64,000 nt of DNA, from the NCBI GenBank assembly GCA_016930415.1, contig JAFGGS010000016.1, positions 213,340 through 277,339 of the forward strand, in the 5' to 3' direction. Below the pieces are notes generated by a model. The model searched no databases. It was not told where the DNA came from and worked only from the letters and a program-made list of their open reading frames with translations. How positions within the stretch are numbered: the stretch's first letter is position 1; every line of letters begins with the position of its first letter. The stretch is from Candidatus Woesearchaeota archaeon (lineage in GTDB: Archaea > Nanobdellota > Nanobdellia > Woesearchaeales > SM23-78). The position numbers were made by a program, and so were the translations under genes. This document shows positions 24,530 to 48,940 of the stretch, in pieces.

Positions 24530-25057
24530 CTATAAGCATCCTCTGACTGCAGAACCAAAAGCGTGCTCTGCAGAGGAATATGCAACTGACAAGAATCTCC
24601 CCTTAAGCCTCTGGACCAGGCTTGCGCTTCGCTCCAAAGCCAGGAGATCAGCGCCTGAGACAAGACTAATCCTGTTCTTACCAGCGTATTGCTTAGCGCA
24701 CCTCGTGAATCCGCTGTCAGTCACCATCAACGGGACTGTTCGTAGGCCATTATAGTTCACAAGCTTAATGTGGAACTCCGTCACCTCCTCCAAACCCACC
24801 AGGGAGTCACTCGAATAGTGGGCCTTGCACTCAAGCACGTAGACCTGAAGACTTGATATTCTCATAAGTACCAGATCGTACTCTCGCTTGGTCGCAGGGT
24901 CTGAGATAAAATCATAATTCCTCATCCAATGGTTCTTCTTCATCCGGACGTAGCCATTCCCAAGGAAAGCATCGAGCACCCTTCTCTCGAACGATCTTCC
25001 AAGATCAGTTGATGAAATGCTGATGAGCCCGACGGTCTTGCGTTCTTTGCCTTTCAT
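24530..25057 (-). CDS. PD-(D/E)XK (Mrr-like) nuclease-fold protein
   Basis: A 175-residue protein with the restriction-endonuclease core: E24 in the first helix (DLGRSFERRVL), D61 in REYDLVLM and E76-C-K78 in YVLECKAHYS, followed by the expected helix and a strand (PLMVTDSGF) of the fold. It could cut or bind DNA; homologous domains occur in type IV restriction enzymes and repair nucleases. Its ATG overlaps the stop of the glycine-zipper gene (ATGA, 25054-25057), so the two proteins are made together. No methyltransferase is nearby, which argues against a classical restriction-modification pair. Confidence 0.75.
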   Translation of the reverse strand: MKGKERKTVGLISISSTDLGRSFERRVLDAFLGNGYVRMKKNHWMRNYDFISDPATKREYDLVLMRISSLQVYVLECKAHYSSDSLVGLEEVTEFHIKLVNYNGLRTVPLMVTDSGFTRCAKQYAGKNRISLVSGADLLALERSASLVQRLKGRFLSVAYSSAEHAFGSAVRGCL

Positions 25058-25422
25058 GCAGGTTCACCCATAGTCTCAGATCCTGCGCGTTCTCGCCTTG
25101 CCTTTTCAGCGTCTTTAATCTCAATGTTTCGGCCTAGGTAGCTCCCTAGAAGAGAGCCTGAAACCCCTCCTGCAACTGCAACAGAAAGCGTGGACACAAG
25201 CTTCTCTTTCAAAGTGTAGTCCCGCTCGTGGTTCGCTATCTTCTCCCCGATATAATAACCAAGAAGGCCTCCGCCGGTCGCGCCAAGACCCGCGCCTATC
25301 ATTCCCGGACGCTTATTCTCAGGCACGCCCTTCCTTTCAAGGTAACTGTCTATTCTCCTCTCCGCATACGCAAGGACGGCTCCGCCTCCCAGCGCGTGCT
25401 TCACAAACTCCCATGGTCTCAT
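25054..25422 (-). CDS. Glycine-zipper membrane-associated protein
   Basis: Small protein of 122 residues with two glycine-rich hydrophobic stretches, GMIGAGLGATGGGLLGYYIG (about 40-59) and LSVAVAGGVSGSLLGSYLG (about 80-99), of the glycine-zipper type that packs helices in membranes or oligomers. The ends are charged. An AGGGGGTG site lies about 9 nt before the ATG. It overlaps the nuclease gene by ATGA. The pairing of a membrane-type zipper protein with a nuclease-fold protein recalls two-component defence modules, but no closer evidence is seen. Confidence 0.7.
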   Translation of the reverse strand: MRPWEFVKHALGGGAVLAYAERRIDSYLERKGVPENKRPGMIGAGLGATGGGLLGYYIGEKIANHERDYTLKEKLVSTLSVAVAGGVSGSLLGSYLGRNIEIKDAEKARRERAGSETMGEPA

Positions 25423-25511: not shown

Positions 25512-26477
25512 TTAGTCTCCAATAATCGCTATAGCGGCGCCTCTGCGAAGCATCCCGCTGCGCACGTATTTGATAATCTTATCCCTAGGAAACCTCGGGC
25601 AACCCTCGCTCTTGCGCTGGCCCAGGTATTCTGTCTCGTTCGTGGTGTGAGCCCCAAGAGATGACCTCCCGCCAGGATCATAAACCCCATTCTTATCCCA
25701 GGATCCCGCGTTAAACCTCGCAAAATAAGGACCATATACTCCTTGGGCTCCGTTATGAATCCAGTTCGTGCTGTTCTCAACAGACACTACGCTAAAGACG
25801 CCGTTAGGAGTCCTCATGTCTCCCTCCCGCTCCTTATCACCAGGATTCAATCCTGTAGATACTATAGTCTCATCAACAAGCTCCATCTTGACGCGATATA
25901 CCCTCGCCTTCTGCTCGTCCTTGTCAACCACAAAAAGATACTCAGAACCGCTCCCAATCCCCCTGAAGAAATCATCATCCTTGGATTCAAGCACGCTTTC
26001 AAGAGACGCTCGACCTCTTCTTGCAGAAGGATTCTTCAAGGAGTCCTCTCTTGAAACAACTACAAGGTCAGAAGCAGGCTCAGGCTCGTAACTCGTCTTC
26101 TGACAAGGGTCGGGCGCAATCATTCCTGAGCGGCCCGCTGAAGGCATATCAAGCTCTGGCGCAACATATGATCTTCCAGAGTAAGACGTAGTGATAGCCA
26201 TCAGGAGGGCGGCAGAGAAGACTCCGGCCTGTCTAACGACTCTCTTGAAGGCGCTTCTCGAAGCATTCCTACGCACAGCAGCAGTGTTGACTGGAACCCT
26301 CAGCCCAGGCCTGGAGCGATCATAACTTCCGGCAGGCGAAAGATGCTGCTTTGAAAAGCAATCAGGGTCTGCAAGCTTAGCAAGCCATAGTTCAGGAATC
26401 ATACCAGGCATCGCATCAGCACCAACCAGACCCCTCACAGGATAATCCACCTGGCGCACTGGATATTTTCCATCCAT
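25512..26477 (-). CDS. L,D-transpeptidase (YkuD) domain protein, apparently catalytic
   Basis: A 321-residue protein. After a cytoplasmic N-terminus and one hydrophobic helix (about 83-98, FSAALLMAITTSY), a YkuD domain occupies about 175-321: a strand YLFVVDKDEQKARVY, then GDMRTPNGVFSV, HTTNETEYLG (His about 277) and the catalytic SEGCPRFPRDKI (Cys about 293), in place of the usual S-H-G-C-I-R-x-x-x-x-D. Such enzymes cross-link peptidoglycan in bacteria; an archaeon should have none, so the substrate is open. The ATG at 26477 overlaps the upstream stop (TGATG). An in-frame TTG further up is less likely. Confidence 0.78.
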   Translation of the reverse strand: MDGKYPVRQVDYPVRGLVGADAMPGMIPELWLAKLADPDCFSKQHLSPAGSYDRSRPGLRVPVNTAAVRRNASRSAFKRVVRQAGVFSAALLMAITTSYSGRSYVAPELDMPSAGRSGMIAPDPCQKTSYEPEPASDLVVVSREDSLKNPSARRGRASLESVLESKDDDFFRGIGSGSEYLFVVDKDEQKARVYRVKMELVDETIVSTGLNPGDKEREGDMRTPNGVFSVVSVENSTNWIHNGAQGVYGPYFARFNAGSWDKNGVYDPGGRSSLGAHTTNETEYLGQRKSEGCPRFPRDKIIKYVRSGMLRRGAAIAIIGD

Positions 26478-27535
26478 CAGCCAAGCACCCAAGTATAGTC
26501 TGCCAACACTCCAGACTTGCCCTTGACTATCACAAGCCCAGGAGTATCTGAAGCGCCTGAAGATGCAAGGCGTCTCTCAAGATTCCTGTAGTCAGAGGCA
26601 GAGAGGATGAACCCACCATTTGACACATCAACGCCTTGCTTGATAGCCCGGTTGATATCAGGGTCTAAACTGCCAGTGATGTATATCCCGCTTCCCATCT
26701 CCTCAGGAAGATGCAGTTCTATGTAGCCAGCAGTGTATTTCGGGTTCCAGTTCCTGAAGTTCTGAGTACCCAAGAAGATGCCATCTGAAGGGCTTGCCTT
26801 GTCACCCTCACTAGCCTTAGGCGCCTGGTTGACTCCAGTAGTGCACTTATAGCTTGCAGCCCTCGAGAAAGCGCTCCCATCTGACTTGAGAAGATCAAGC
26901 GTGTTAGCTTCCTTATCAATCAAGACAGCATAAGAGAATTCTCCTGCAGCACCTGACAAATATGATTCTAACGTTCCAGAAGACTGACGTACGCTAGGCA
27001 TTGACCGATCCGGCTGGCCTCCTGGTTGCCGGCTTAGGTTATTGACCTGATCCTCAAGAGCACCAATCCTACCATTATAGAACTGCTTCTTCTCCTGCTC
27101 CAAAGCAGCTATAGTCTTTTGCTTATCAGCCAGAGAGATTTCAAGCTCAAGCCCTCTCTTCTCAGCTTCAATCCGCGCATGGTTTGAATAAGCATTCGCA
27201 ATCTCTACAAAAGAATTCTTTGTCCATGAAGCAGCATCATATACTCCGCGGGAAATAACTTCAACACTTGCCTTCACATGTTCGTAAGTCCACTGCGGAG
27301 CCCTAACACCTGCGGCGGTCAAGACAAGCACTCCACCAAAAGCAGTCGCCCTCATAGTCTTTCCAAAACCAGGAGGATTCTTGAACCCACCCAGTATTAA
27401 GGATCCAGTCTTCTTGGCAACGCTATACACTGCTCTACCGCCATACCAAGCGCCCACGAGCACAGTAGCTCCTGCGCCAGCAGCGCCTATAGCACTCCAC
27501 TTCGCTCCAGTCTTGATTGCTCCTCCGATGCTCAT
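26477..27535 (-). CDS. Degenerate L,D-transpeptidase-like membrane protein
   Basis: A 352-residue protein with hydrophobic N-terminal segments (about 10-45 and 60-80), a coiled-coil stretch (about 115-165), and a C-terminal YkuD-like domain from about 190: YAVLIDKEANTLDLLKS, DKASPSDGIFLGT, GIYITGS and VSNGGFILSASDYRNL. The last aligns with the S-H-G-C-I-R-L-S-x-x-D active-site stretch, but the Cys is Gly (about 308) and His is Asn, so the domain is probably inactive. Start at 27535 is set by AGGAGG seven bases upstream. It is translationally coupled to the catalytic partner (TGATG). Confidence 0.7.
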   Translation of the reverse strand: MSIGGAIKTGAKWSAIGAAGAGATVLVGAWYGGRAVYSVAKKTGSLILGGFKNPPGFGKTMRATAFGGVLVLTAAGVRAPQWTYEHVKASVEVISRGVYDAASWTKNSFVEIANAYSNHARIEAEKRGLELEISLADKQKTIAALEQEKKQFYNGRIGALEDQVNNLSRQPGGQPDRSMPSVRQSSGTLESYLSGAAGEFSYAVLIDKEANTLDLLKSDGSAFSRAASYKCTTGVNQAPKASEGDKASPSDGIFLGTQNFRNWNPKYTAGYIELHLPEEMGSGIYITGSLDPDINRAIKQGVDVSNGGFILSASDYRNLERRLASSGASDTPGLVIVKGKSGVLADYTWVLG

Positions 27536-27720
27536 CTTATCGCCTCCTTGAGATTCCATAAAACCTTTCCATGGTTCTTGATGAAAAAGACTGGCGTCGG
27601 TGTTTAAAATAAGCTCTCGAAAGGATTTCGTAGAATAAACGGGAAAACCGAAAGAATCAATGAATCAGTCAGAATCAGGGGTTATGAAGAAAAGAGAAAC
27701 AGGAAGAACAAGAAGCAAAG

Positions 27721-28164
27721 TCACGCCCTGGAAGCGATAGGCATCTCCTCAGTCTTGACAGGAGCGACGACGTCATGATGCTCGATCGCTGACAACCCAT
27801 AATCATCAAGCACATCTAAGAAAGCATAGAATTCCTTCATGCCAGGGAAGATTACGTCAACCATGAAGTCATAATCATTTATCTTCATGATGGAATTCAC
27901 AGATGGATGGGCCTCCAGGAAGGAGAGAAGCTCGTCACGCCTCCCGGATTTCAAGAAAATGAAGCTCCTGTAATTAAAACCCAGCTGCTTATAGTCGATA
28001 ATGGAGGAATGTTTCCTGACAACACCACCTCTGGCAAGCTTGACATAGTTATCATAAACAGTGGTTATCGGAAGCCCGTGCTCTCGCGCTATCTCGCTAA
28101 AGCCGGCTCGACCATTCCGCCTAAGGGTCCCTATTATCTTCAAATGATTAGCTCTGATCTTCAT
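27721..28164 (-). CDS. Lrp/AsnC-family transcriptional regulator
   Basis: N-terminal helix-turn-helix (residues 1-50, GFSEIAREHGLPITTVYDNYVKL in parts) and a C-terminal alpha/beta ligand-binding (RAM) domain (about 65-135, with FIFLKSGRRDELLSFL and INDYDFMVDVIFPGM). 147 residues is normal. ATG lies about 26 nt after a CTTTATTAAAC promoter, so translation is leaderless. The gap upstream to the divergent small coiled-coil gene contains both promoters. The effector is unknown. It is a different subfamily from the Lrp at 30494, with lower sequence similarity by eye. Confidence 0.88.
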   Translation of the reverse strand: MKIRANHLKIIGTLRRNGRAGFSEIAREHGLPITTVYDNYVKLARGGVVRKHSSIIDYKQLGFNYRSFIFLKSGRRDELLSFLEAHPSVNSIMKINDYDFMVDVIFPGMKEFYAFLDVLDDYGLSAIEHHDVVAPVKTEEMPIASRA

Positions 28165-40661: not shown

Positions 40662-41660
40662 ATGGCGCCCACCAAGAAACAAGCTAGCGAGAGCTATGCC
40701 CGAACAGAGCAACCAAACCAGACTTCTCTACTCAGCAGAATATCCGAATCCATAAGCAAGAACATAAGAGACCAACTAATATTCACGCTCCTTCTAGAGA
40801 CAGGATGCTCAAGCCAAGAGCTTACCGAGATGAAGCCCAAAGACATCGAGTTTACGACGAATTCTATAAGCATAGGGCAAGGCGCACAGAGGAGAACAGT
40901 CAAGATCTCCAAGACATTGAGTTTGCAGCTAAAATATTTCACAGACAAGAAGAAAGAACGCCTCTTCTCCACAAGGCAAAGCAAAGGACTGACAGCCAGA
41001 CGAGTGATGCAGCTAGCCAAGCAGCACACCAAGGCCTTCATGAGAAGAGAACTGAGCACGCGAGAGATAAGAAAGATATACCTCGGAGCCAAGACCACAG
41101 AAGCCAGCAAAGAAGGAGGAGCAGAGGAACTGAAGAGAGAAGCAGGCCTAAGGTCCCTCAGGACAAAAGAAAGCCTAAGCCAGGAACAAGTAAGGCTGAT
41201 AAGAGGGCGAATAGAGGATGAGCAGCACAAGCTGATATTCGACACCATACTCGAGACGGGCTGCCGCCTAAGCGAGCTCGTGAACATAAAAGCCAAAGAC
41301 CTCGACGTCAAGAAAGACAGCATAAGAATCGGGAAACACACTTCTAAGATAAGCCAAAGATTGAGTTTACAACTAACAGGACTGACAGGGAAAAAACAGC
41401 CAAACAAATTCTTGTTCTCGACAAGGCAAAGCCCGCAGATCTCAGACAAAAGAGTGTTCCAGCTAGTCAGGGATTACGCCAAGAAGGCAGGGATCCAAGG
41501 CGTAAGCCCGCAAATCCTCAGGAACACGAGCATAGCGCAGGCCATGGAAGAGGGAAAAGACGCAAAAGAGATCGAGCAGCAGACAGGAATCAAACATCTA
41601 GACCTGCACCACTACGGCATCTCCATCAGGATGAAAGATGGAGGTGAGGGGCGACGATGA
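40662..41660 (+). CDS. Tandem tyrosine-recombinase-like protein
   Basis: 332 residues containing two copies of a tyrosine-recombinase catalytic-domain core. Copy 1 (about 32-140) has LLLETGCSSQELTEMKPKDIE; copy 2 (about 175-320) has TILETGCRLSELVNIKAKDLD. Both continue with a KISK/SQ-x-LSLQL and LFSTRQS segment. Copy 2 keeps Arg202, Arg287 in SPQILRNTS (usual His replaced by Gln), H-H at 316-317 and Tyr318. Copy 1 has Ser at the first Arg and stops before the His/Tyr part, so only copy 2 could be active. No N-terminal arm-binding domain is evident. Its stop overlaps the surface-protein start by ATGA. Confidence 0.78.
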   Translation: MAPTKKQASESYARTEQPNQTSLLSRISESISKNIRDQLIFTLLLETGCSSQELTEMKPKDIEFTTNSISIGQGAQRRTVKISKTLSLQLKYFTDKKKERLFSTRQSKGLTARRVMQLAKQHTKAFMRRELSTREIRKIYLGAKTTEASKEGGAEELKREAGLRSLRTKESLSQEQVRLIRGRIEDEQHKLIFDTILETGCRLSELVNIKAKDLDVKKDSIRIGKHTSKISQRLSLQLTGLTGKKQPNKFLFSTRQSPQISDKRVFQLVRDYAKKAGIQGVSPQILRNTSIAQAMEEGKDAKEIEQQTGIKHLDLHHYGISIRMKDGGEGRR

Positions 41661-44600
41661 GCATAAGTAAGGACATAACGAAGAGCGAAGCCAAGATGAT
41701 CATGGCAATCCTAGTTTTGGTCCTAACACTAATCTCTATAGTGCCCACGGCCAGCGCAGCCCTCTGGTGGGACACGACCTGGCAATACAGAAAAGACATC
41801 AACATCACAAACGTCGGCAGCACGGCGCTCACGGACTTCCCAGCATACCTGAACATCTCAAAAGAGGCAGGGATGCTCTCCAACTATACCGACCTGAGAT
41901 TCATATACGGAAGCTGTGAAGCCAACGGAAGCACGATATTGCCTTACGAATTAGAGAACTACACCGCGACAACAGCCCACGCATGGGTGCGCATACCATC
42001 CCTCACCACAGGCACAAACATCATATGCATGTACTATGGCAACCCCTCTGCGACGGACAGCCAGAACCGGACGGAAGTATGGAATGCCAACTACGTCGGG
42101 GTGTGGCATATGTCTGAGACAGGAACAGGCATAAGAGCAGATTCAACACAAAACGCCCACAGCGCAACACCGACAAACTATGACGGAGACGAAAAAATAA
42201 CAGGAGCAATAGATGGAGCAGACGACCTGGACGGAGCAGCAACAGCAGGAGACTACCTGCAAACAACCAGTGCAGAATCATTAACAGCAGACAACCTGAC
42301 CTGGGAAGTATGGTTCAAGGCAGACGCAATCGCGATATCACACCTACTATGGGAAGGAGAAGGAGGAGGAAACGGATTCGGAGTAAACGGAGAAATGCAC
42401 ATCTCCATAGGACAATACGCAGGAGCAGTAACAGACCAGATACTATCATTCTTCCTAGGAACAGACGAACCACCAGGAACAGGACAAATGCTATTCATAA
42501 ACATGACATTCAACGACATAACAAACACATACTACGCCGCGTTCGAAGTAGCAAACCTGAGTACCGCGCCCAGCGCAAGAGCATACCTAGACGGAACACT
42601 AATAGGAACAGACACAGGAACGACAGCAGGAGTAAGCAGAAGCGACTGGAACACAAACCTAAGAATAGGAAGACCAGGAACAGACAACAGATACTTCTCA
42701 GGAATGATAGACGAGATAAGAATATCGACCGCCTCAAGAAGCCAAGACTGGATAAACCAAACATACCAAGTGATGTCCAACCAGGCAGACGTGGTGGCTG
42801 CAGGGGCAGAAGAGAACATGACAGGACCGACAATAGAGTTCAACACATCCACAACCGCAGCAGGCATGCACTCTCAGGATTGGATCAGCGCCAACATCAC
42901 GGCCGCATCGCAATACTTCGCCAACATAACAATCAACTTATATAATGGAAGCGAGAGCCAGTTGAACGCCACAACCAGCAGCTCATCACCGTACTACGTG
43001 ACATTTGCAGGCCTAGCAGACGGGACGTATTACCTGAACGCGACGTCCTACGACACCAGGGGATTCTACAACTGGACTGGCACCAGGACAATCATATTGG
43101 ATACGACCAGCCCTTCAAACGAGTATTCCAGCGGCGCTGCGCCAGACGGATCTTCCTTTGCAAGGGACTGGATCTACGCTGACATCTCAGCCTCAGACCA
43201 ATATGAGCAGAACGTGACCTTCAGGCTCTACAACGCGAGCCAGGCAATCAACATAACCACCTTAGGAGCCGGCAACAGGAGCATCAACTGGACAGGACTC
43301 CACACCAACAGCAAGTACTGGTACAACGTAACCGTAACTGACCAGGCAGGGAACTTCAACACTACTGCAACCAGGAACATAACCCTAGACACAGTCAATC
43401 CAGAGATAGATTATGATTCTGAGACAACAAGCGAAGGAGCCCATTCTCAGAGCTGGATCGATGTGTTCCTGACCGCCATAGACAACTTCTTCCAGTCAAT
43501 CCAGACATTCCTCTACAACTCAGCAGGAGGGCTGGTGAATTCCACCAACAGCACCAGCCCGACCGTTTCGGTCAACTACACCTCGCTGAGCGACGGTACG
43601 TACTACCTGAATGCCACTGCGAATGACACTGCAGGTAACAGCAACTGGACTGCCACAAGAACAATCTTGCTGGACACAATCAATCCAAACATCACATTCG
43701 GAGATGGGACTGAGGAGAACGGCTCATTCAGGAGCAGGAGCTGGATATATGTGGACATAAATGCAAGCGACGCGAATGAGGAGAACTTGACCTTCAGATT
43801 ATACAACGCCAGCTTCTCGACACTAAACGCGACCACTCTTGGAGCAGGCAACAGGAGCATCAACTGGACCGGCCTTGACAGCAACATGGAATACTGGTAC
43901 AACGCGACAATAACAGACAGGGCAGGAAACACGAACCAGACAGAAACAAGGAAGATAACGCTAGACTCCACTTCCCCAGGCATAGCCTTCGAGAGCCAGA
44001 CCACCACCGCAGGGTTCAAAGTGCAGAACTGGATCTACGTCAACCTGACAGTGAACGAAACCAACAAGAACAACGTAACAATATCCTTATTCAACGCATC
44101 AGGAAGCATACTCAACTACTCGACAAGCACAAACGCGACTATGCCAGTAAACTTCACAGGACTTCCAGATGGCAAATACTACCTGAACGCGACAGCGAAC
44201 GATACTGCAGGAAACAAGAACAGCACAGAGACAAGAAACATCACACTAGACAGGACAAATCCAAGCATAAATTACAGCACAGGCACTGAGAACAATGGAA
44301 CCTTCTTTGCCAGGAACTGGATATGCGTCAACCTGACCGCGAACGACACGAACGAAGCAAACATCACCTTCAGGCTATACAACTCGACATACGGCCAACT
44401 GAACGCGACAACGCTAGGACCAGGAAACAGGAGCATAAACTGGACAGGATTGGGAGAGGGAACATACAGCTACAACACGACGATTTACGACCTGGCAGGC
44501 TTATCAAACAGCACCACCTCAAGGACCATTAGCCTTGACGGCAGCAATCCAAGCATAAACTACAGTACAGGAACAGAAGACAACAACACATACTTCAACA

Positions 44601-47600
44601 AGAGCTGGATCTACGTCAACTTGACAGCATACGACTTGAATGAGGCAAACGTCACCTTCAGGCTATACAACTCGACATACGGCCAACTGAACGCGACAAC
44701 ACTAGGACCGGGCAACCGGAGCATAAACTGGACGAGCCTGAACAGCAACGCAATATACTGGTACAACGCGACAATAACAGACGCCGTCAACAACCAGAAC
44801 ACGACAGAGACCAGGAAGATAACGCTGGACAGCACGACACCCACCATAAGCTTCGGGGCAGGGACAGAGAACAGCAGCACGTTCTTTGCCAGAGACTGGA
44901 TCTACCTCAACCTCTCAGCAAACGACGCAAACGAGGAGAACATCACATTCACGCTCTACAACTCAACACTCCAGGCAATCAACACCACAACCTTAGGACC
45001 AGGAAACAGGAGCATAAACTTCACAGGATTGATAGAAGGAACATACCACTACAACGCGACCATAAGGGACAAGGTAGGTCTCGCAAAAGCTACTGAAACT
45101 AGGAATATGACGCTGGACGCGACTGATCCGAGCGTGTACTTCAACCCCCAGACTTCTGCAGCAGGATACAACTCCCAAAACTGGATCTCTGCCACAGTGA
45201 CTGCGACAGACAGCAACTTAGATATGATGATAATATACTTGTACAACGCCACTGGGAGCGCGATAAACACCACGACCAACTCAGCATCGCCATTATTCGT
45301 CAACCACACCAGCCTAGCTGACGGGACGTATTACCTTAATGCGACTGCCAACGACACCGCAGGGAACGACAACGCAACAGAAACAAGAACTATAACACTC
45401 GACACCACCAACCCAATCATAAACTTCAGCTCAGGAACAGAATCTGGCGGGGCATTCTTCGCCAGGAACTGGATATATGCCAACACGACAGCATATGACC
45501 TGCACGAGGCGAACGTCACCTTCAGGCTATACAACTCGACATACGACCAACTGAACACGACAACACTAGGACCAGGAAACAGGAGCATAAACTGGACAGG
45601 ACTAAGCGAAGGAGTGTACAGCTACAACACCACCATAACAGACAAAGCAGGCCATCAGAACAGCACAGAGACAAGAAACATCACGCTAGACATCCAGCCT
45701 CCGAGCATGAATTATGAATCTGGAACAGAAGGAAACAACACTTACGTAAACAGGAATTGGATCTCCATCAACGTCTCAGCGACAGACATCAACTTCAACA
45801 CTTTAACAGTATACGCATACAACATCACAGGAATCCTGGTCAACAGCACGACCAGCGGGACGGCGCAGCTATACGTCAACTACACTAGCTTGGCAGATGG
45901 AAAATACCTCCTGAACGCTAGCGCGAATGACTCAGTAGGAAACTCAGGCAGCCTTGGAACCCTAAACGTCATCATAGACACGCAGAGCCCGTCTATAGAT
46001 TACGGCGCCGGCACGGAAAGCGACGGGGAGACAGTGAACGTGACCTGGATATACGCAGATATAATCGCAAGCGACGTGAATGAGGAGAATGTGACATTCA
46101 GGCTATACAACTCGACATACAGCCAACTGAACGAGACCACTCTAGGACCAGGGAACAGGAGCATAAACTGGACAAGCCTCACTCAAGGCACGTACAACTA
46201 CAACGCAACTATAAGAGACAAAGCAGGGAACGAGAACTCTACAGCCACAAGGACTATATCAATAGTCATAGACACGACGCCTCCGAACGTGACGTTCGAG
46301 ACGCCGACCACAAGCTCGGGATTCACGCTTTACGACTGGATTGTCGCTAACGTGAGCGCAGAGGACAACAGCGTGCTAAACATGATATCAATAGGCCTAT
46401 ACAATGCGTCAGGATGGGGGATCAACACCACTAACAGCTCAAGCTCGCCGTTCTTTGCCAACTTCACAGGGCTTTCGGATGGGACATATCTCCTGAATGC
46501 AAGCGCAGTCGATGACGTATTCAACTATAATCACACAGAGACAAGGAGTATCACAGTGGACACGCTGGATCCAACAGTCAGCCTGAGCTCAGGCACAGAG
46601 GACAATGACAGCCTGCTTAGCAGGAACTGGATATATCTTAACATAAGCGCATTCGATCTCAACGAGGCAAACGTCACGTTCAACTTATATAACACCAGCG
46701 GAGGAGGCATAAACAAGACAACGCTAGGACCAGGAAACAGGAGCATAAACTGGACAGGACTAAGCAGCAACGCAGAATACAGGTACAACGCGACCATAAC
46801 AGACAAGGCAGGGCGCAGCAACAGCACCGAAACCAGGACCTTGACCCTGGACGCGTCCCCTGTGAACATAAGCTTCGAGGCAGAAACCACCACGAGCGGG
46901 TCAAAAGCCCAGGACTGGATAGCTGCGAACATAAGCGCGAGCTCCACCAGCCTGGAAATGATAATGATCAGGTTGTACAACTCGACAGGAACACTGGTCA
47001 ACTACACTCAAAGCTCAACTTCACCGCTATTCGCGAACTACACAAGCCTTCAGCCAGATACTTATTTCCTGAACGCGAGCGCAAACGATACGAGAGGGCT
47101 GTGGAACTGGACTGAGACGAGGACTATAAACCTAGGAGGAGTCATGATGATCTCCCTCGAGTCTCCAGCCAACAACAGCGGAGACGAAGACGGCACAGTA
47201 AGCTTCAGATACAGCGTTAACGGAGCAGGCAGCCTCTCGAATTGCAGCCTGATAATGGATGGAGCGATAGACCAGACTGTCGCGGCTCCACCGCAAGGTG
47301 TAAGCCTTAACTTCTCGAAATCAGGATTATCATCAGGAAGCTATAGCTGGAGCGTCAACTGCACAGACGGATTCGGACTGGAAGAGGAGTCAACTACGAG
47401 GAAGCTGGATGTGATACGCCTCGATGGTTTCAGCGGCGACACGACGAACATATCTGGAGTGCAGGACCTGTCAAACATCACGAACTTCACACTCCACAAG
47501 CCAGGAATCAGCAAGATAGTGTTCACGGACGCGGTAAATCTCAGCGGAGGATCATACGTTGCATCAATAGTCACGACTGACTCTGGCTGGGCTAGCGTGA

Positions 47601-48940
47601 ACTCCACAGCCGAACCCAGGCTCAACAGGAACGCGACAATAGAAATATACGGCCTGACGTACGCATACACCCCAATAGTACTTGTCGACGGAACCCCTTG
47701 CCTTGAAGACTGCATTATCAACAGCTACCTTGGAGGGAATCTCTCATTCAACGTCACTCACTTCTCTAACTACACTGCCAAGAGCAATTCCCAGCTTTTG
47801 ATCTGGGACGACACAGACATCGAGAGGATGGAAGTAGGAGAAGTCGTCACGTTCTACGCGAACTTCAGCAACACCACTAACGGAGAGTCGATAAACGGCG
47901 CAGGAGCTGCTTGCGACATAGGCTTCAGCGACACAGGAGTCTCCAGCATGACCTTCAATCCTACGACCAAATTATACACTTACCAGCGGACCTTCACAAT
48001 CGCAGGATACGCGAACTTCAACGTCAGCTGCGACGCGACCACCTTAGGATACGAGGAGCTGACGCTCTTTGACAGTGCGATAATAGCCAATGATTATTAC
48101 GGCCCAAGGAACAACCATAACCAATACTATGTGAGGACCACTGTCAACATCACGGACTCCCCGCCAGAGATACTCAACATCTCCTGCAACGGAGACGAGG
48201 ACATAACTCTCAACGCAGGATCCACGCAGAGGGTGCAGTGCAGCGTGATAATAAGGGACTACAATGGCGGCAACACGATACAATACGTGAACTCGACGTT
48301 CTCATACTTCCTGAACTCATCAGACGACCCTGACGACAACAACATCCACTATACCAACACCAGCTGCACTCATAACAGTACAGACGGATATAATGCCACG
48401 TGGGACTGCGCCTTCGACGTCTGGTACTACGCCAACAACGGCACGTGGAACGTGAACGTGACAGTGACAGATGACTTCCCGTTCATAGTCAGCAGCATTA
48501 GCAACACGACAATCCTCCCGATGTACGCAATAGATGTCACCCCGCTGATAGATTTCGGAGAGATGTACGTGGGAGAAGTATCCTCAAGCTCTGTGCAGGC
48601 AAACATCACCAACTACGGAAACATGGAGATAAACGTGAGCGTGTATGGCTTCGGAGGGGAGAACGAGACCAAAGGAGCCGGCCTTGCAATGATATGCAAC
48701 ACCAGGAATATAACAAGCGACGACGAGAGATACTCTCTTAATCCGGCAGACACCTGGGCTACGATGGCCGCGATAAGCCAGACACCTACACTACTGCCAT
48801 CCCTGACGATGCCTCAGCAAGAGGACGACCTCACCCAGATCATGAACTCGACATACTGGAGGCTGTTCATCAATCCAGTGTCAAACCCAGACGGAATATG
48901 CAACGGAACAGTGATATTCTCAGCAGAATCGCCGATCTAG
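41657..48940 (+). CDS. Giant secreted repeat protein (DUF2341, LamG-like, Ig-like repeats)
   Basis: 2427 residues. A Sec-type signal (hydrophobic MAILVLVLTLISIVPTASA, about 16-34) is followed by a DUF2341 domain (WWDTTWQYRKDINI, about 36-130), a LamG/concanavalin-like domain (about 140-385), fifteen Ig-like repeats of about 96 residues (392-1828), a diverged Ig domain (about 1829-1915) and a C-terminal region of about 500 residues with further beta domains. N-x-S/T sequons occur in almost every repeat, so heavy glycosylation is likely. No C-terminal membrane anchor is visible, so it must be held by other means or released. ATGA overlap links it to the recombinase gene. Probable adhesin or cell-surface layer protein. 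Confidence 0.9.
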   Translation: MSISKDITKSEAKMIMAILVLVLTLISIVPTASAALWWDTTWQYRKDINITNVGSTALTDFPAYLNISKEAGMLSNYTDLRFIYGSCEANGSTILPYELENYTATTAHAWVRIPSLTTGTNIICMYYGNPSATDSQNRTEVWNANYVGVWHMSETGTGIRADSTQNAHSATPTNYDGDEKITGAIDGADDLDGAATAGDYLQTTSAESLTADNLTWEVWFKADAIAISHLLWEGEGGGNGFGVNGEMHISIGQYAGAVTDQILSFFLGTDEPPGTGQMLFINMTFNDITNTYYAAFEVANLSTAPSARAYLDGTLIGTDTGTTAGVSRSDWNTNLRIGRPGTDNRYFSGMIDEIRISTASRSQDWINQTYQVMSNQADVVAAGAEENMTGPTIEFNTSTTAAGMHSQDWISANITAASQYFANITINLYNGSESQLNATTSSSSPYYVTFAGLADGTYYLNATSYDTRGFYNWTGTRTIILDTTSPSNEYSSGAAPDGSSFARDWIYADISASDQYEQNVTFRLYNASQAINITTLGAGNRSINWTGLHTNSKYWYNVTVTDQAGNFNTTATRNITLDTVNPEIDYDSETTSEGAHSQSWIDVFLTAIDNFFQSIQTFLYNSAGGLVNSTNSTSPTVSVNYTSLSDGTYYLNATANDTAGNSNWTATRTILLDTINPNITFGDGTEENGSFRSRSWIYVDINASDANEENLTFRLYNASFSTLNATTLGAGNRSINWTGLDSNMEYWYNATITDRAGNTNQTETRKITLDSTSPGIAFESQTTTAGFKVQNWIYVNLTVNETNKNNVTISLFNASGSILNYSTSTNATMPVNFTGLPDGKYYLNATANDTAGNKNSTETRNITLDRTNPSINYSTGTENNGTFFARNWICVNLTANDTNEANITFRLYNSTYGQLNATTLGPGNRSINWTGLGEGTYSYNTTIYDLAGLSNSTTSRTISLDGSNPSINYSTGTEDNNTYFNKSWIYVNLTAYDLNEANVTFRLYNSTYGQLNATTLGPGNRSINWTSLNSNAIYWYNATITDAVNNQNTTETRKITLDSTTPTISFGAGTENSSTFFARDWIYLNLSANDANEENITFTLYNSTLQAINTTTLGPGNRSINFTGLIEGTYHYNATIRDKVGLAKATETRNMTLDATDPSVYFNPQTSAAGYNSQNWISATVTATDSNLDMMIIYLYNATGSAINTTTNSASPLFVNHTSLADGTYYLNATANDTAGNDNATETRTITLDTTNPIINFSSGTESGGAFFARNWIYANTTAYDLHEANVTFRLYNSTYDQLNTTTLGPGNRSINWTGLSEGVYSYNTTITDKAGHQNSTETRNITLDIQPPSMNYESGTEGNNTYVNRNWISINVSATDINFNTLTVYAYNITGILVNSTTSGTAQLYVNYTSLADGKYLLNASANDSVGNSGSLGTLNVIIDTQSPSIDYGAGTESDGETVNVTWIYADIIASDVNEENVTFRLYNSTYSQLNETTLGPGNRSINWTSLTQGTYNYNATIRDKAGNENSTATRTISIVIDTTPPNVTFETPTTSSGFTLYDWIVANVSAEDNSVLNMISIGLYNASGWGINTTNSSSSPFFANFTGLSDGTYLLNASAVDDVFNYNHTETRSITVDTLDPTVSLSSGTEDNDSLLSRNWIYLNISAFDLNEANVTFNLYNTSGGGINKTTLGPGNRSINWTGLSSNAEYRYNATITDKAGRSNSTETRTLTLDASPVNISFEAETTTSGSKAQDWIAANISASSTSLEMIMIRLYNSTGTLVNYTQSSTSPLFANYTSLQPDTYFLNASANDTRGLWNWTETRTINLGGVMMISLESPANNSGDEDGTVSFRYSVNGAGSLSNCSLIMDGAIDQTVAAPPQGVSLNFSKSGLSSGSYSWSVNCTDGFGLEEESTTRKLDVIRLDGFSGDTTNISGVQDLSNITNFTLHKPGISKIVFTDAVNLSGGSYVASIVTTDSGWASVNSTAEPRLNRNATIEIYGLTYAYTPIVLVDGTPCLEDCIINSYLGGNLSFNVTHFSNYTAKSNSQLLIWDDTDIERMEVGEVVTFYANFSNTTNGESINGAGAACDIGFSDTGVSSMTFNPTTKLYTYQRTFTIAGYANFNVSCDATTLGYEELTLFDSAIIANDYYGPRNNHNQYYVRTTVNITDSPPEILNISCNGDEDITLNAGSTQRVQCSVIIRDYNGGNTIQYVNSTFSYFLNSSDDPDDNNIHYTNTSCTHNSTDGYNATWDCAFDVWYYANNGTWNVNVTVTDDFPFIVSSISNTTILPMYAIDVTPLIDFGEMYVGEVSSSSVQANITNYGNMEINVSVYGFGGENETKGAGLAMICNTRNITSDDERYSLNPADTWATMAAISQTPTLLPSLTMPQQEDDLTQIMNSTYWRLFINPVSNPDGICNGTVIFSAESPI
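42830..47140 (+). repeat. Array of fifteen about 288-nt coding repeats of two alternating types
   Basis: Type A repeats carry a short SSSSP-x-FVNFTGL-x-DGTYYLNATANDTAGN pattern; type B carry TTLGPGNRSINWTGL and YWYNATITDKAGN. In order they read A-B-A-B-A-B-B-B-A-B-A-B-A-B-A. The run of three B units (about 44260-45120) breaks an otherwise strict alternation. Type B units share long stretches of near-identical DNA (for example around 44375, 44665, 45525 and 46095), pointing to recent duplication or gene conversion. Confidence 0.88.

What the first reader, a model, noticed from the sequence alone, without database searches (positions are those of the whole stretch)
25512..27535. Two translationally coupled L,D-transpeptidase-like proteins in an archaeon, one catalytic and one dead
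The sequence shows a YkuD domain with its catalytic Cys (S-E-G-C-P-R) in the downstream gene and a co-linear domain with Gly in that position (S-N-G-G-F-I-L) in the upstream gene, linked by a TGATG overlap. Both have N-terminal hydrophobic helices. L,D-transpeptidases cross-link peptidoglycan, which archaea lack. An active/inactive pair suggests a receptor or scaffold with an enzyme, acting on another surface peptide, on a protein, or on the wall of a bacterial partner.
Basis: partly seen in the sequence, partly recalled or inferred. Interest (0 to 1): 0.82.

Follow-up and report, generated by a model that had tools for sequence, protein, structure and literature searches.

The report
Archaeal active/dead L,D-transpeptidase-like gene pair
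A probable tiny symbiotic archaeon that seems unable to build a bacterial-type wall carries a conserved two-gene unit, one intact bacterial wall-editing enzyme and one permanently broken copy of it, inside an operon where a close relative has other bacterial-wall-type modules, which suggests a surface tool for gripping and editing the wall of a bacterial neighbour.

Summary
Window 26477-25512 (-) encodes a membrane-anchored YkuD protein (Pfam PF03734, 40.8 bits, cut-off 23.4) with catalytic His277 and Cys293. The gene before it (27535-26477), joined by a TGATG overlap, encodes a co-linear YkuD domain with Thr and Gly at those places. This is an old arrangement, not a local accident. Profiles place both in the YkuD family. 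Sixteen archaeal genomes in seven families of the order have a dead copy directly before an active one (one split by contig ends). The dead copies form one clade (support 95/89, catalytic columns removed). All 17 dead copies in the alignment lack both residues; all 20 active ones keep both. The operon also holds AAA+ ATPases, a VWA protein, an Mrr-like nuclease and HTH or LysM proteins. One congener keeps the same operon but has LysM in the dead slot and a polysaccharide deacetylase in the active slot. That swap favours 'wall-binding module plus wall-editing enzyme'. The host genome has no detected Mur ligase but has SLT-type (lytic transglycosylase) matches, so a bacterial neighbour's peptidoglycan is the likeliest target. 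Catalysis, binding and target are inferred. I found no description of such a pair in the searched papers.

The parts
26477..27535 (-). upstream gene: membrane-anchored pseudo-YkuD protein, 352 aa
   Evidence: D-profile 164-165 bits; the window sequence is one of the profile's own rows
27543..27547 (-). GGAGG, likely ribosome-binding site of the upstream gene
   Evidence: sequence
27296..27502 (-). putative membrane hairpin of the upstream protein (approx. residues 12-80), positively charged loop between the helices
   Evidence: read from sequence and alignment with congeners; below the hydropathy threshold in this protein
27026..27184 (-). probable coiled-coil stalk (approx. residues 118-170)
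   Evidence: read from sequence; position conserved in congeners
26501..26929 (-). dead YkuD domain (approx. residues 203-345)
26675..26677 (-). Thr287 in the place of the catalytic His
26612..26614 (-). Gly308 in the place of the catalytic Cys
26475..26479 (-). TGATG stop/start overlap
25512..26477 (-). downstream gene: membrane-anchored YkuD protein with intact catalytic residues, 321 aa
26184..26240 (-). membrane helix, residues 80-98, preceded by a positive flank (+5)
25569..25940 (-). YkuD domain, residues 180-303
25647..25649 (-). catalytic His277
25593..25601 (-). catalytic Cys293 (25599-25601) and Arg295 (25593-25595) of SEGCPR
25054..25422 (-). glycine-zipper membrane protein, conserved operon member in the genus
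24530..25057 (-). Mrr-type restriction-endonuclease-like protein, near the pair in 10 loci of 5 families; overlaps the glycine-zipper gene by 4 bases
27721..28164 (-). AsnC/Lrp-type regulator, conserved beside the locus in the genus

Best explanation
The two genes make a membrane-anchored surface complex of a probable symbiotic archaeon. The downstream protein is a YkuD enzyme whose domain lies outside the cell and uses Cys293 and His277 to cut or transfer the stem peptides of peptidoglycan (L,D-carboxypeptidase or L,D-transpeptidase chemistry). The upstream protein carries a YkuD fold that has lost catalysis and serves as a binding or positioning module on a stalk, holding the same polymer or the enzyme. 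The two are made together by coupled translation. The target is most likely the peptidoglycan of a bacterial neighbour or host, because the archaeon shows no Mur ligase of its own. Shown: family membership, presence or absence of catalytic residues, single clade and conserved pairing of the dead copy, the operon context and the LysM/deacetylase replacement. Inferred: location outside the cell, complex formation, binding role, chemistry and target.
For: YkuD membership: 40.8 bits; dead homologues over the cut-off; profile against profile, 99.0%; both profiles hit solved YkuD enzymes Bd1075 7o21, Csd6 4xzz and Pgp2 6xj6. Catalytic residues: H and C in 20/20 active and 0/17 dead copies. Dead clade 95/89 with motif columns removed. 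Strong active and strong dead profile hits co-occur in 14 of 353 genomes of the order, against 3 active-only and 2 dead-only (odds 779, p 2e-20; relatedness of genomes not corrected; some profile seeds come from these same genomes). Adjacent, same strand, overlap of 1 or 4 bases in 9 of 15 contiguous pairs. Positive flank on the N side of the helix in most proteins where one is detected. Same-genus G006: same operon (AAA 60%, VWA 50%, Mrr 59%, regulator 67% identity; dead-slot N-terminus homologous to G002's, E 1.6e-15), with LysM (21.3 bits) and polysaccharide deacetylase (37.8 bits) in the two slots. LysM/deacetylase again close together in G026 and G102. LysM in a protein beside the pair in G352. 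No Mur ligase but SLT-type matches on two contigs in the own genome.
Against: No biochemical or structural test; single-sequence structure models failed (pLDDT 32 and 37). The window's own dead protein is one of the most divergent of its clade (end branch 1.52) and lacks the C-terminal IEHSxRPL motif of many relatives. The window locus lacks the AAA+/VWA genes of some congeners; a VWA search of the own genome found none. LysM and SLT matches are also common in genomes without the pair, so they are not specific. The LysM score in G006 is only just over its cut-off. LysM and deacetylases can also act on chitin-like or other GlcNAc polymers. HTH domains on some YkuD/LysM partners sit on the same side of the predicted helix as YkuD, which fits neither a simple outside nor a simple inside model.
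Confidence: 0.52

Rival explanations
1. The pair acts on the archaeon's own surface: the active YkuD cross-links or trims peptides of surface proteins or attaches proteins to the cell surface, and the dead copy is its scaffold.
For: Membrane-anchored, stably inherited pair; the genome shows no Mur ligase, so endogenous murein is unlikely; large repeat surface proteins exist (window 41657-48940).
Against: YkuD enzymes act on a D-centre-containing stem peptide in established cases, and no such archaeal substrate is known (own knowledge); the LysM plus deacetylase replacement points to a GlcNAc polymer.
Confidence: 0.18
2. The operon is a nucleic-acid transfer or uptake machine (nuclease, HTH proteins, AAA+ motors) and the YkuD pair locally opens or docks to a bacterial wall for it.
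For: Mrr-like protein near the pair in 10 loci of 5 families, usually single-copy in the genome; AAA+ genes and HTH proteins in the operon.
Against: No recognised transfer or uptake component was found; the Mrr-like protein has no evident export signal and may simply be a cytoplasmic nuclease; HTH domains may be regulatory.
Confidence: 0.15
3. The dead copy is not dead but uses other chemistry: 10 of 17 have Cys in the place of the catalytic His, and many share a C-terminal IEHSxRPL motif.
Against: The Cys is absent in the window's protein (Thr) and six others, and the motif is absent or altered in several; no invariant polar set remains (only G, G, A, I invariant in 9 sequences).
Confidence: 0.07
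4. The upstream gene is a decaying copy or the pair is a bacterial contaminant in the assembly.
For: GC3 of the pair (0.49 and 0.46) is below that of nine other window genes tested (0.56-0.70).
Against: Pair and flanking genes are syntenic in several congeners; both frames are open in seven families; archaeal marker genes flank the pair on the same 395 kb contig.
Confidence: 0.03

Closest known systems
YkuD L,D-transpeptidases (PF03734; B. subtilis YkuD, LdtMt2)
   Same: Domain, His...SxGCxR catalytic signature in the active copy, membrane-anchored.
   Different: Archaeal host without a detected Mur ligase; conserved dead partner; large operon with AAA+, VWA and Mrr-like genes.
LD-carboxypeptidases Csd6 (4xzz), Pgp2 (6xj6) and Bd1075 (7o21)
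   Same: Closest solved relatives by profile for both the active and the dead family; long GDKxxxGDxxTPxG segment.
   Different: No C-terminal NTF2-like domain in the window protein; Arg follows the catalytic Cys (SEGCPR), where Bd1075 and the Aquificaceae relative read RGCVV.
Archaeal peptidoglycan hydrolases and DPANN murein transglycosylases (PMC12352652, PMC8204110, PMC9723730)
   Same: Archaeal genes for enzymes that act on bacterial walls, prominent in Nanoarchaeota/Woesearchaeota.
   Different: Find-searches of the main texts gave no mention of YkuD or transpeptidase where those terms were tried, and no enzyme/pseudo-enzyme pair was seen.
MoxR-type AAA+ / VWA gene pairs
   Same: Adjacent AAA+ and VWA genes in G001, G005 and G006.
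   Different: Here coupled to extracytoplasmic wall-type modules and an Mrr-like gene; absent from the window's own locus.

Membership tests
YkuD / L,D-transpeptidase catalytic domain (PF03734), downstream protein | profile score over the curated cut-off | tested here: met
   40.8 bits against 23.4
YkuD / L,D-transpeptidase catalytic domain (PF03734), downstream protein | catalytic Cys and His, SxGCxR motif | tested here: met
   His277, Cys293, Arg295
YkuD / L,D-transpeptidase catalytic domain (PF03734), downstream protein | 3D fold | tested here: inconclusive
   single-sequence model pLDDT 32
L,D-transpeptidase (activity) | transfer of stem peptides in vitro | not testable with these tools
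   needs biochemistry
YkuD family, upstream protein | profile score over the cut-off | tested here: inconclusive
   the window protein itself has no hit; homologues L023, L024, L030 and L092 pass; D profile aligns with A profile at 99.0%
YkuD family, upstream protein | catalytic Cys and His | tested here: not met
   Gly308 and Thr287; 0 of 17 dead copies keep either residue at those columns
Csd6/Pgp2/Bd1075 LD-carboxypeptidases | YkuD domain followed by an NTF2-like domain (PF24125 in the Aquificaceae relative) | tested here: not met
   the window protein ends 18 residues after the domain; no NTF2 hit, unlike L020
Csd6/Pgp2/Bd1075 LD-carboxypeptidases | carboxypeptidase rather than transpeptidase activity | not testable with these tools
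   needs biochemistry

The most novel reading that the evidence does not exclude
Archaea of this order carry a modular trans-envelope apparatus for gripping and editing the walls of bacterial partners: a cytoplasmic AAA+ (and VWA) drive, a stalked membrane anchor with an exchangeable wall-binding head (dead YkuD or LysM) and a coupled wall-editing enzyme (YkuD or polysaccharide deacetylase), linked with an Mrr-like nuclease and DNA-binding-type proteins, possibly to take up DNA or nutrients.
Probability: 0.3. Interest if true: 0.88.

Novelty: new variant of a known kind. Interest (0 to 1): 0.72.

Why it matters
How tiny symbiotic archaea touch and exploit their partners, and whether some live on bacteria rather than archaea, is an open question. 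A conserved, membrane-anchored pair of a wall-editing enzyme and a catalytically dead sister gives a directly testable molecular handle. It would also be, as far as the searched literature goes, the first described YkuD pseudo-enzyme that is co-inherited with its active partner, and the LysM/deacetylase swap in a congener says what the dead copy is probably for.

Tried and rejected
A two-sequence alignment of the pair was poor. The viral-contig scan with the active profile found no relatives, and the dead profile was too variable to scan. The named-genome scan found only an Aquificaceae Csd6-like protein, so the host could not be named. PHROGs and PADLOC were not used. The idea of a local, recent gene decay was rejected by conservation over seven families and one clade of dead copies. 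Other YkuD genes of the order (f62 and others) were checked: those read have intact catalytic residues and different partners (for example a GH3 gene), so they were treated as a separate group. G004, another congener, could not settle the slot question because its contig ends at the VWA gene.

Full report
What is there. Two genes on the minus strand overlap by one base (TGATG). The upstream gene (27535-26477) encodes a 352-residue protein, with GGAGG just before its ATG; the downstream gene (26477-25512) encodes 321 residues. The downstream protein matches PF03734 (YkuD) at 40.8 bits, above the 23.4 cut-off, over residues 180-303. It holds His277, Cys293 and Arg295 in the expected order. The upstream protein has no Pfam YkuD match of its own, but BLASTP finds the downstream one (E 5e-6 in a two-sequence comparison), and the alignment puts Thr287 and Gly308 at the His and Cys positions.

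The family test. Homologues were gathered from related genomes. Three upstream homologues pass the PF03734 cut-off alone (35.2, 31.8, 41.3 bits), as does one from family f82 (33.8 bits). The active profile (A1) and the dead profile (A2) align over 130 columns at 99.0% probability. Both profiles find the same group of solved enzymes: 7o21 first, with 6xj6/6xj7 and 4xzz. By PMC8938487 these are Bd1075, Pgp2 and Csd6, and Csd6 acts as an L,D-carboxypeptidase with a His160-Gly161-Cys176 triad (PMC4599014).

How old and how constant is the pair. In 353 genomes of the order, strong active and strong dead hits co-occur in 14 genomes, with 3 active-only and 2 dead-only (Fisher p 2e-20, not corrected for relatedness, and part of the profile seeds come from these genomes). 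Two of the active-only genomes (G338, G340) have, in the adjacent upstream position, more degenerate relatives recognised by position and architecture. That makes 16 genomes in seven families. In 15 the two genes are on one contig, dead first, same strand; 9 of these overlap by 1 or 4 bases. In G323 the pair is split between contig ends. In an alignment of 50 YkuD domains, all 20 active copies have His and Cys and all 17 dead copies have neither. With those columns removed, the dead copies form one side of a branch (95/89) and the paired active copies another (93/69, one unpaired copy outside). The root is not inferred, and the window's dead copy is a long branch that does not group with its genus mates. 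In a draw over the phylum (371 genomes), hits outside the order were weak and those read were single active-type genes.

Surroundings. In the genus the order is regulator (AsnC type) - dead - active - [AAA+ - VWA in some] - small proteins - glycine zipper - Mrr-like - HTH protein. The window has regulator, pair, glycine zipper and Mrr-like protein. In other families the pair comes with an AAA+ ATPase and coiled-coil proteins (G063, G073, G321), a TM-LysM-HTH protein (G073, G352; LysM 22.9 bits in G352) and again an Mrr-like protein. The Mrr-like family is found in 10 loci from five families, while PF04471 matches are mostly single-copy per genome.

The informative exception. G006, same genus, has no YkuD pair, yet its locus L114 is syntenic: regulator 67%, AAA 60%, VWA 50%, Mrr-like 59%, plus glycine zipper, HTH and flanking gene. 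Its dead-slot protein keeps the hairpin and coiled coil (E 1.6e-15 to G002's) but ends in LysM (21.3 bits, cut-off 20.9). Its active-slot protein is a polysaccharide deacetylase (37.8 bits, cut-off 23.1). In family f21, G102 and G026 also have a hairpin/coiled-coil/LysM gene followed, one gene later, by a deacetylase-type gene (G026's gene is cut by the contig end and is supported by its match to the G006 protein, not by Pfam). The simplest reading is that the dead YkuD fills a binding role like LysM, and that the active slot holds an enzyme for a GlcNAc- and peptide-bearing polymer.

Where it acts. Most proteins with a detected helix have a positive flank on its N side and the YkuD domain after it, which by the positive-inside rule puts YkuD outside (a simple hydropathy scan, not a dedicated predictor). 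The host genome has no Mur_ligase_M match (the genome is 91% complete) but has SLT matches on two contigs. SLT is common in the order, so it shows a general taste for murein-type polymers, not a link with the pair. Published work reports lytic transglycosylases in Woesearchaeota and Pacearchaeota (PMC8204110, PMC9723730; [quoted passage not shown] None of the passages read mentions YkuD. A search for YkuD with archaea gave 15 papers, none on this subject by title and abstract.

Host. The window holds exosome Rrp4, proteasome alpha, Rpp14/Pop5, deoxyhypusine synthase and FtsZ, so it is archaeal.

Mechanism, step by step. Shown: family, residues, pairing, single clade of dead copies, operon and replacement. 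Inferred: coupled synthesis, complex, outside location, peptidoglycan as substrate, bacterial neighbour as its source. Whether the chemistry is carboxypeptidase or transpeptidase cannot be told: the nearest solved relatives are carboxypeptidases, but the window protein has no NTF2-like domain and has Arg after the Cys. Open: HTH domains that lie on the same predicted side as YkuD or LysM in G075, G320 and G352, and the role of the Mrr-like protein.

Noticed in passing
L102:3107-5413 and L105:4615-6635 (family f62 genomes): An active YkuD gene directly follows (L105: 4-base overlap) a glycoside hydrolase family 3 gene (46.5 and 64.7 bits), a second archaeal pairing of YkuD with a carbohydrate-active enzyme.
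   Followed up: partly
L156:871-3167 and L157:4832-7935 (family f21 genomes): Hairpin/coiled-coil LysM gene followed, one gene later, by a polysaccharide-deacetylase-type gene, as in the G006 locus.
   Followed up: partly
L161:3312-4751 (G016): Membrane-anchored SLT plus LysM protein (60.5 and 44.3 bits) next to an AsnC-type regulator.
   Followed up: no
L026:676-2145, L028:1258-2313, L092:2122-5133: YkuD proteins with a C-terminal HTH-like region (resolvase/Clr5-like in L026); in two of them no second membrane helix lies between, so the side of the membrane is unclear.
   Followed up: partly
window 25512-27535: GC3 of the pair (0.49, 0.46) is lower than in nine other window genes tested (0.56-0.70).
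   Followed up: no
window 41657-48940: 2427-residue surface protein with Big_13 repeats and an N-terminal DUF2341 domain.
   Followed up: no
L097:7865-9292 and L098:3938-4915: Active YkuD copies of family f54 carry an insertion between the HG(N) and SHGC motifs.
   Followed up: no
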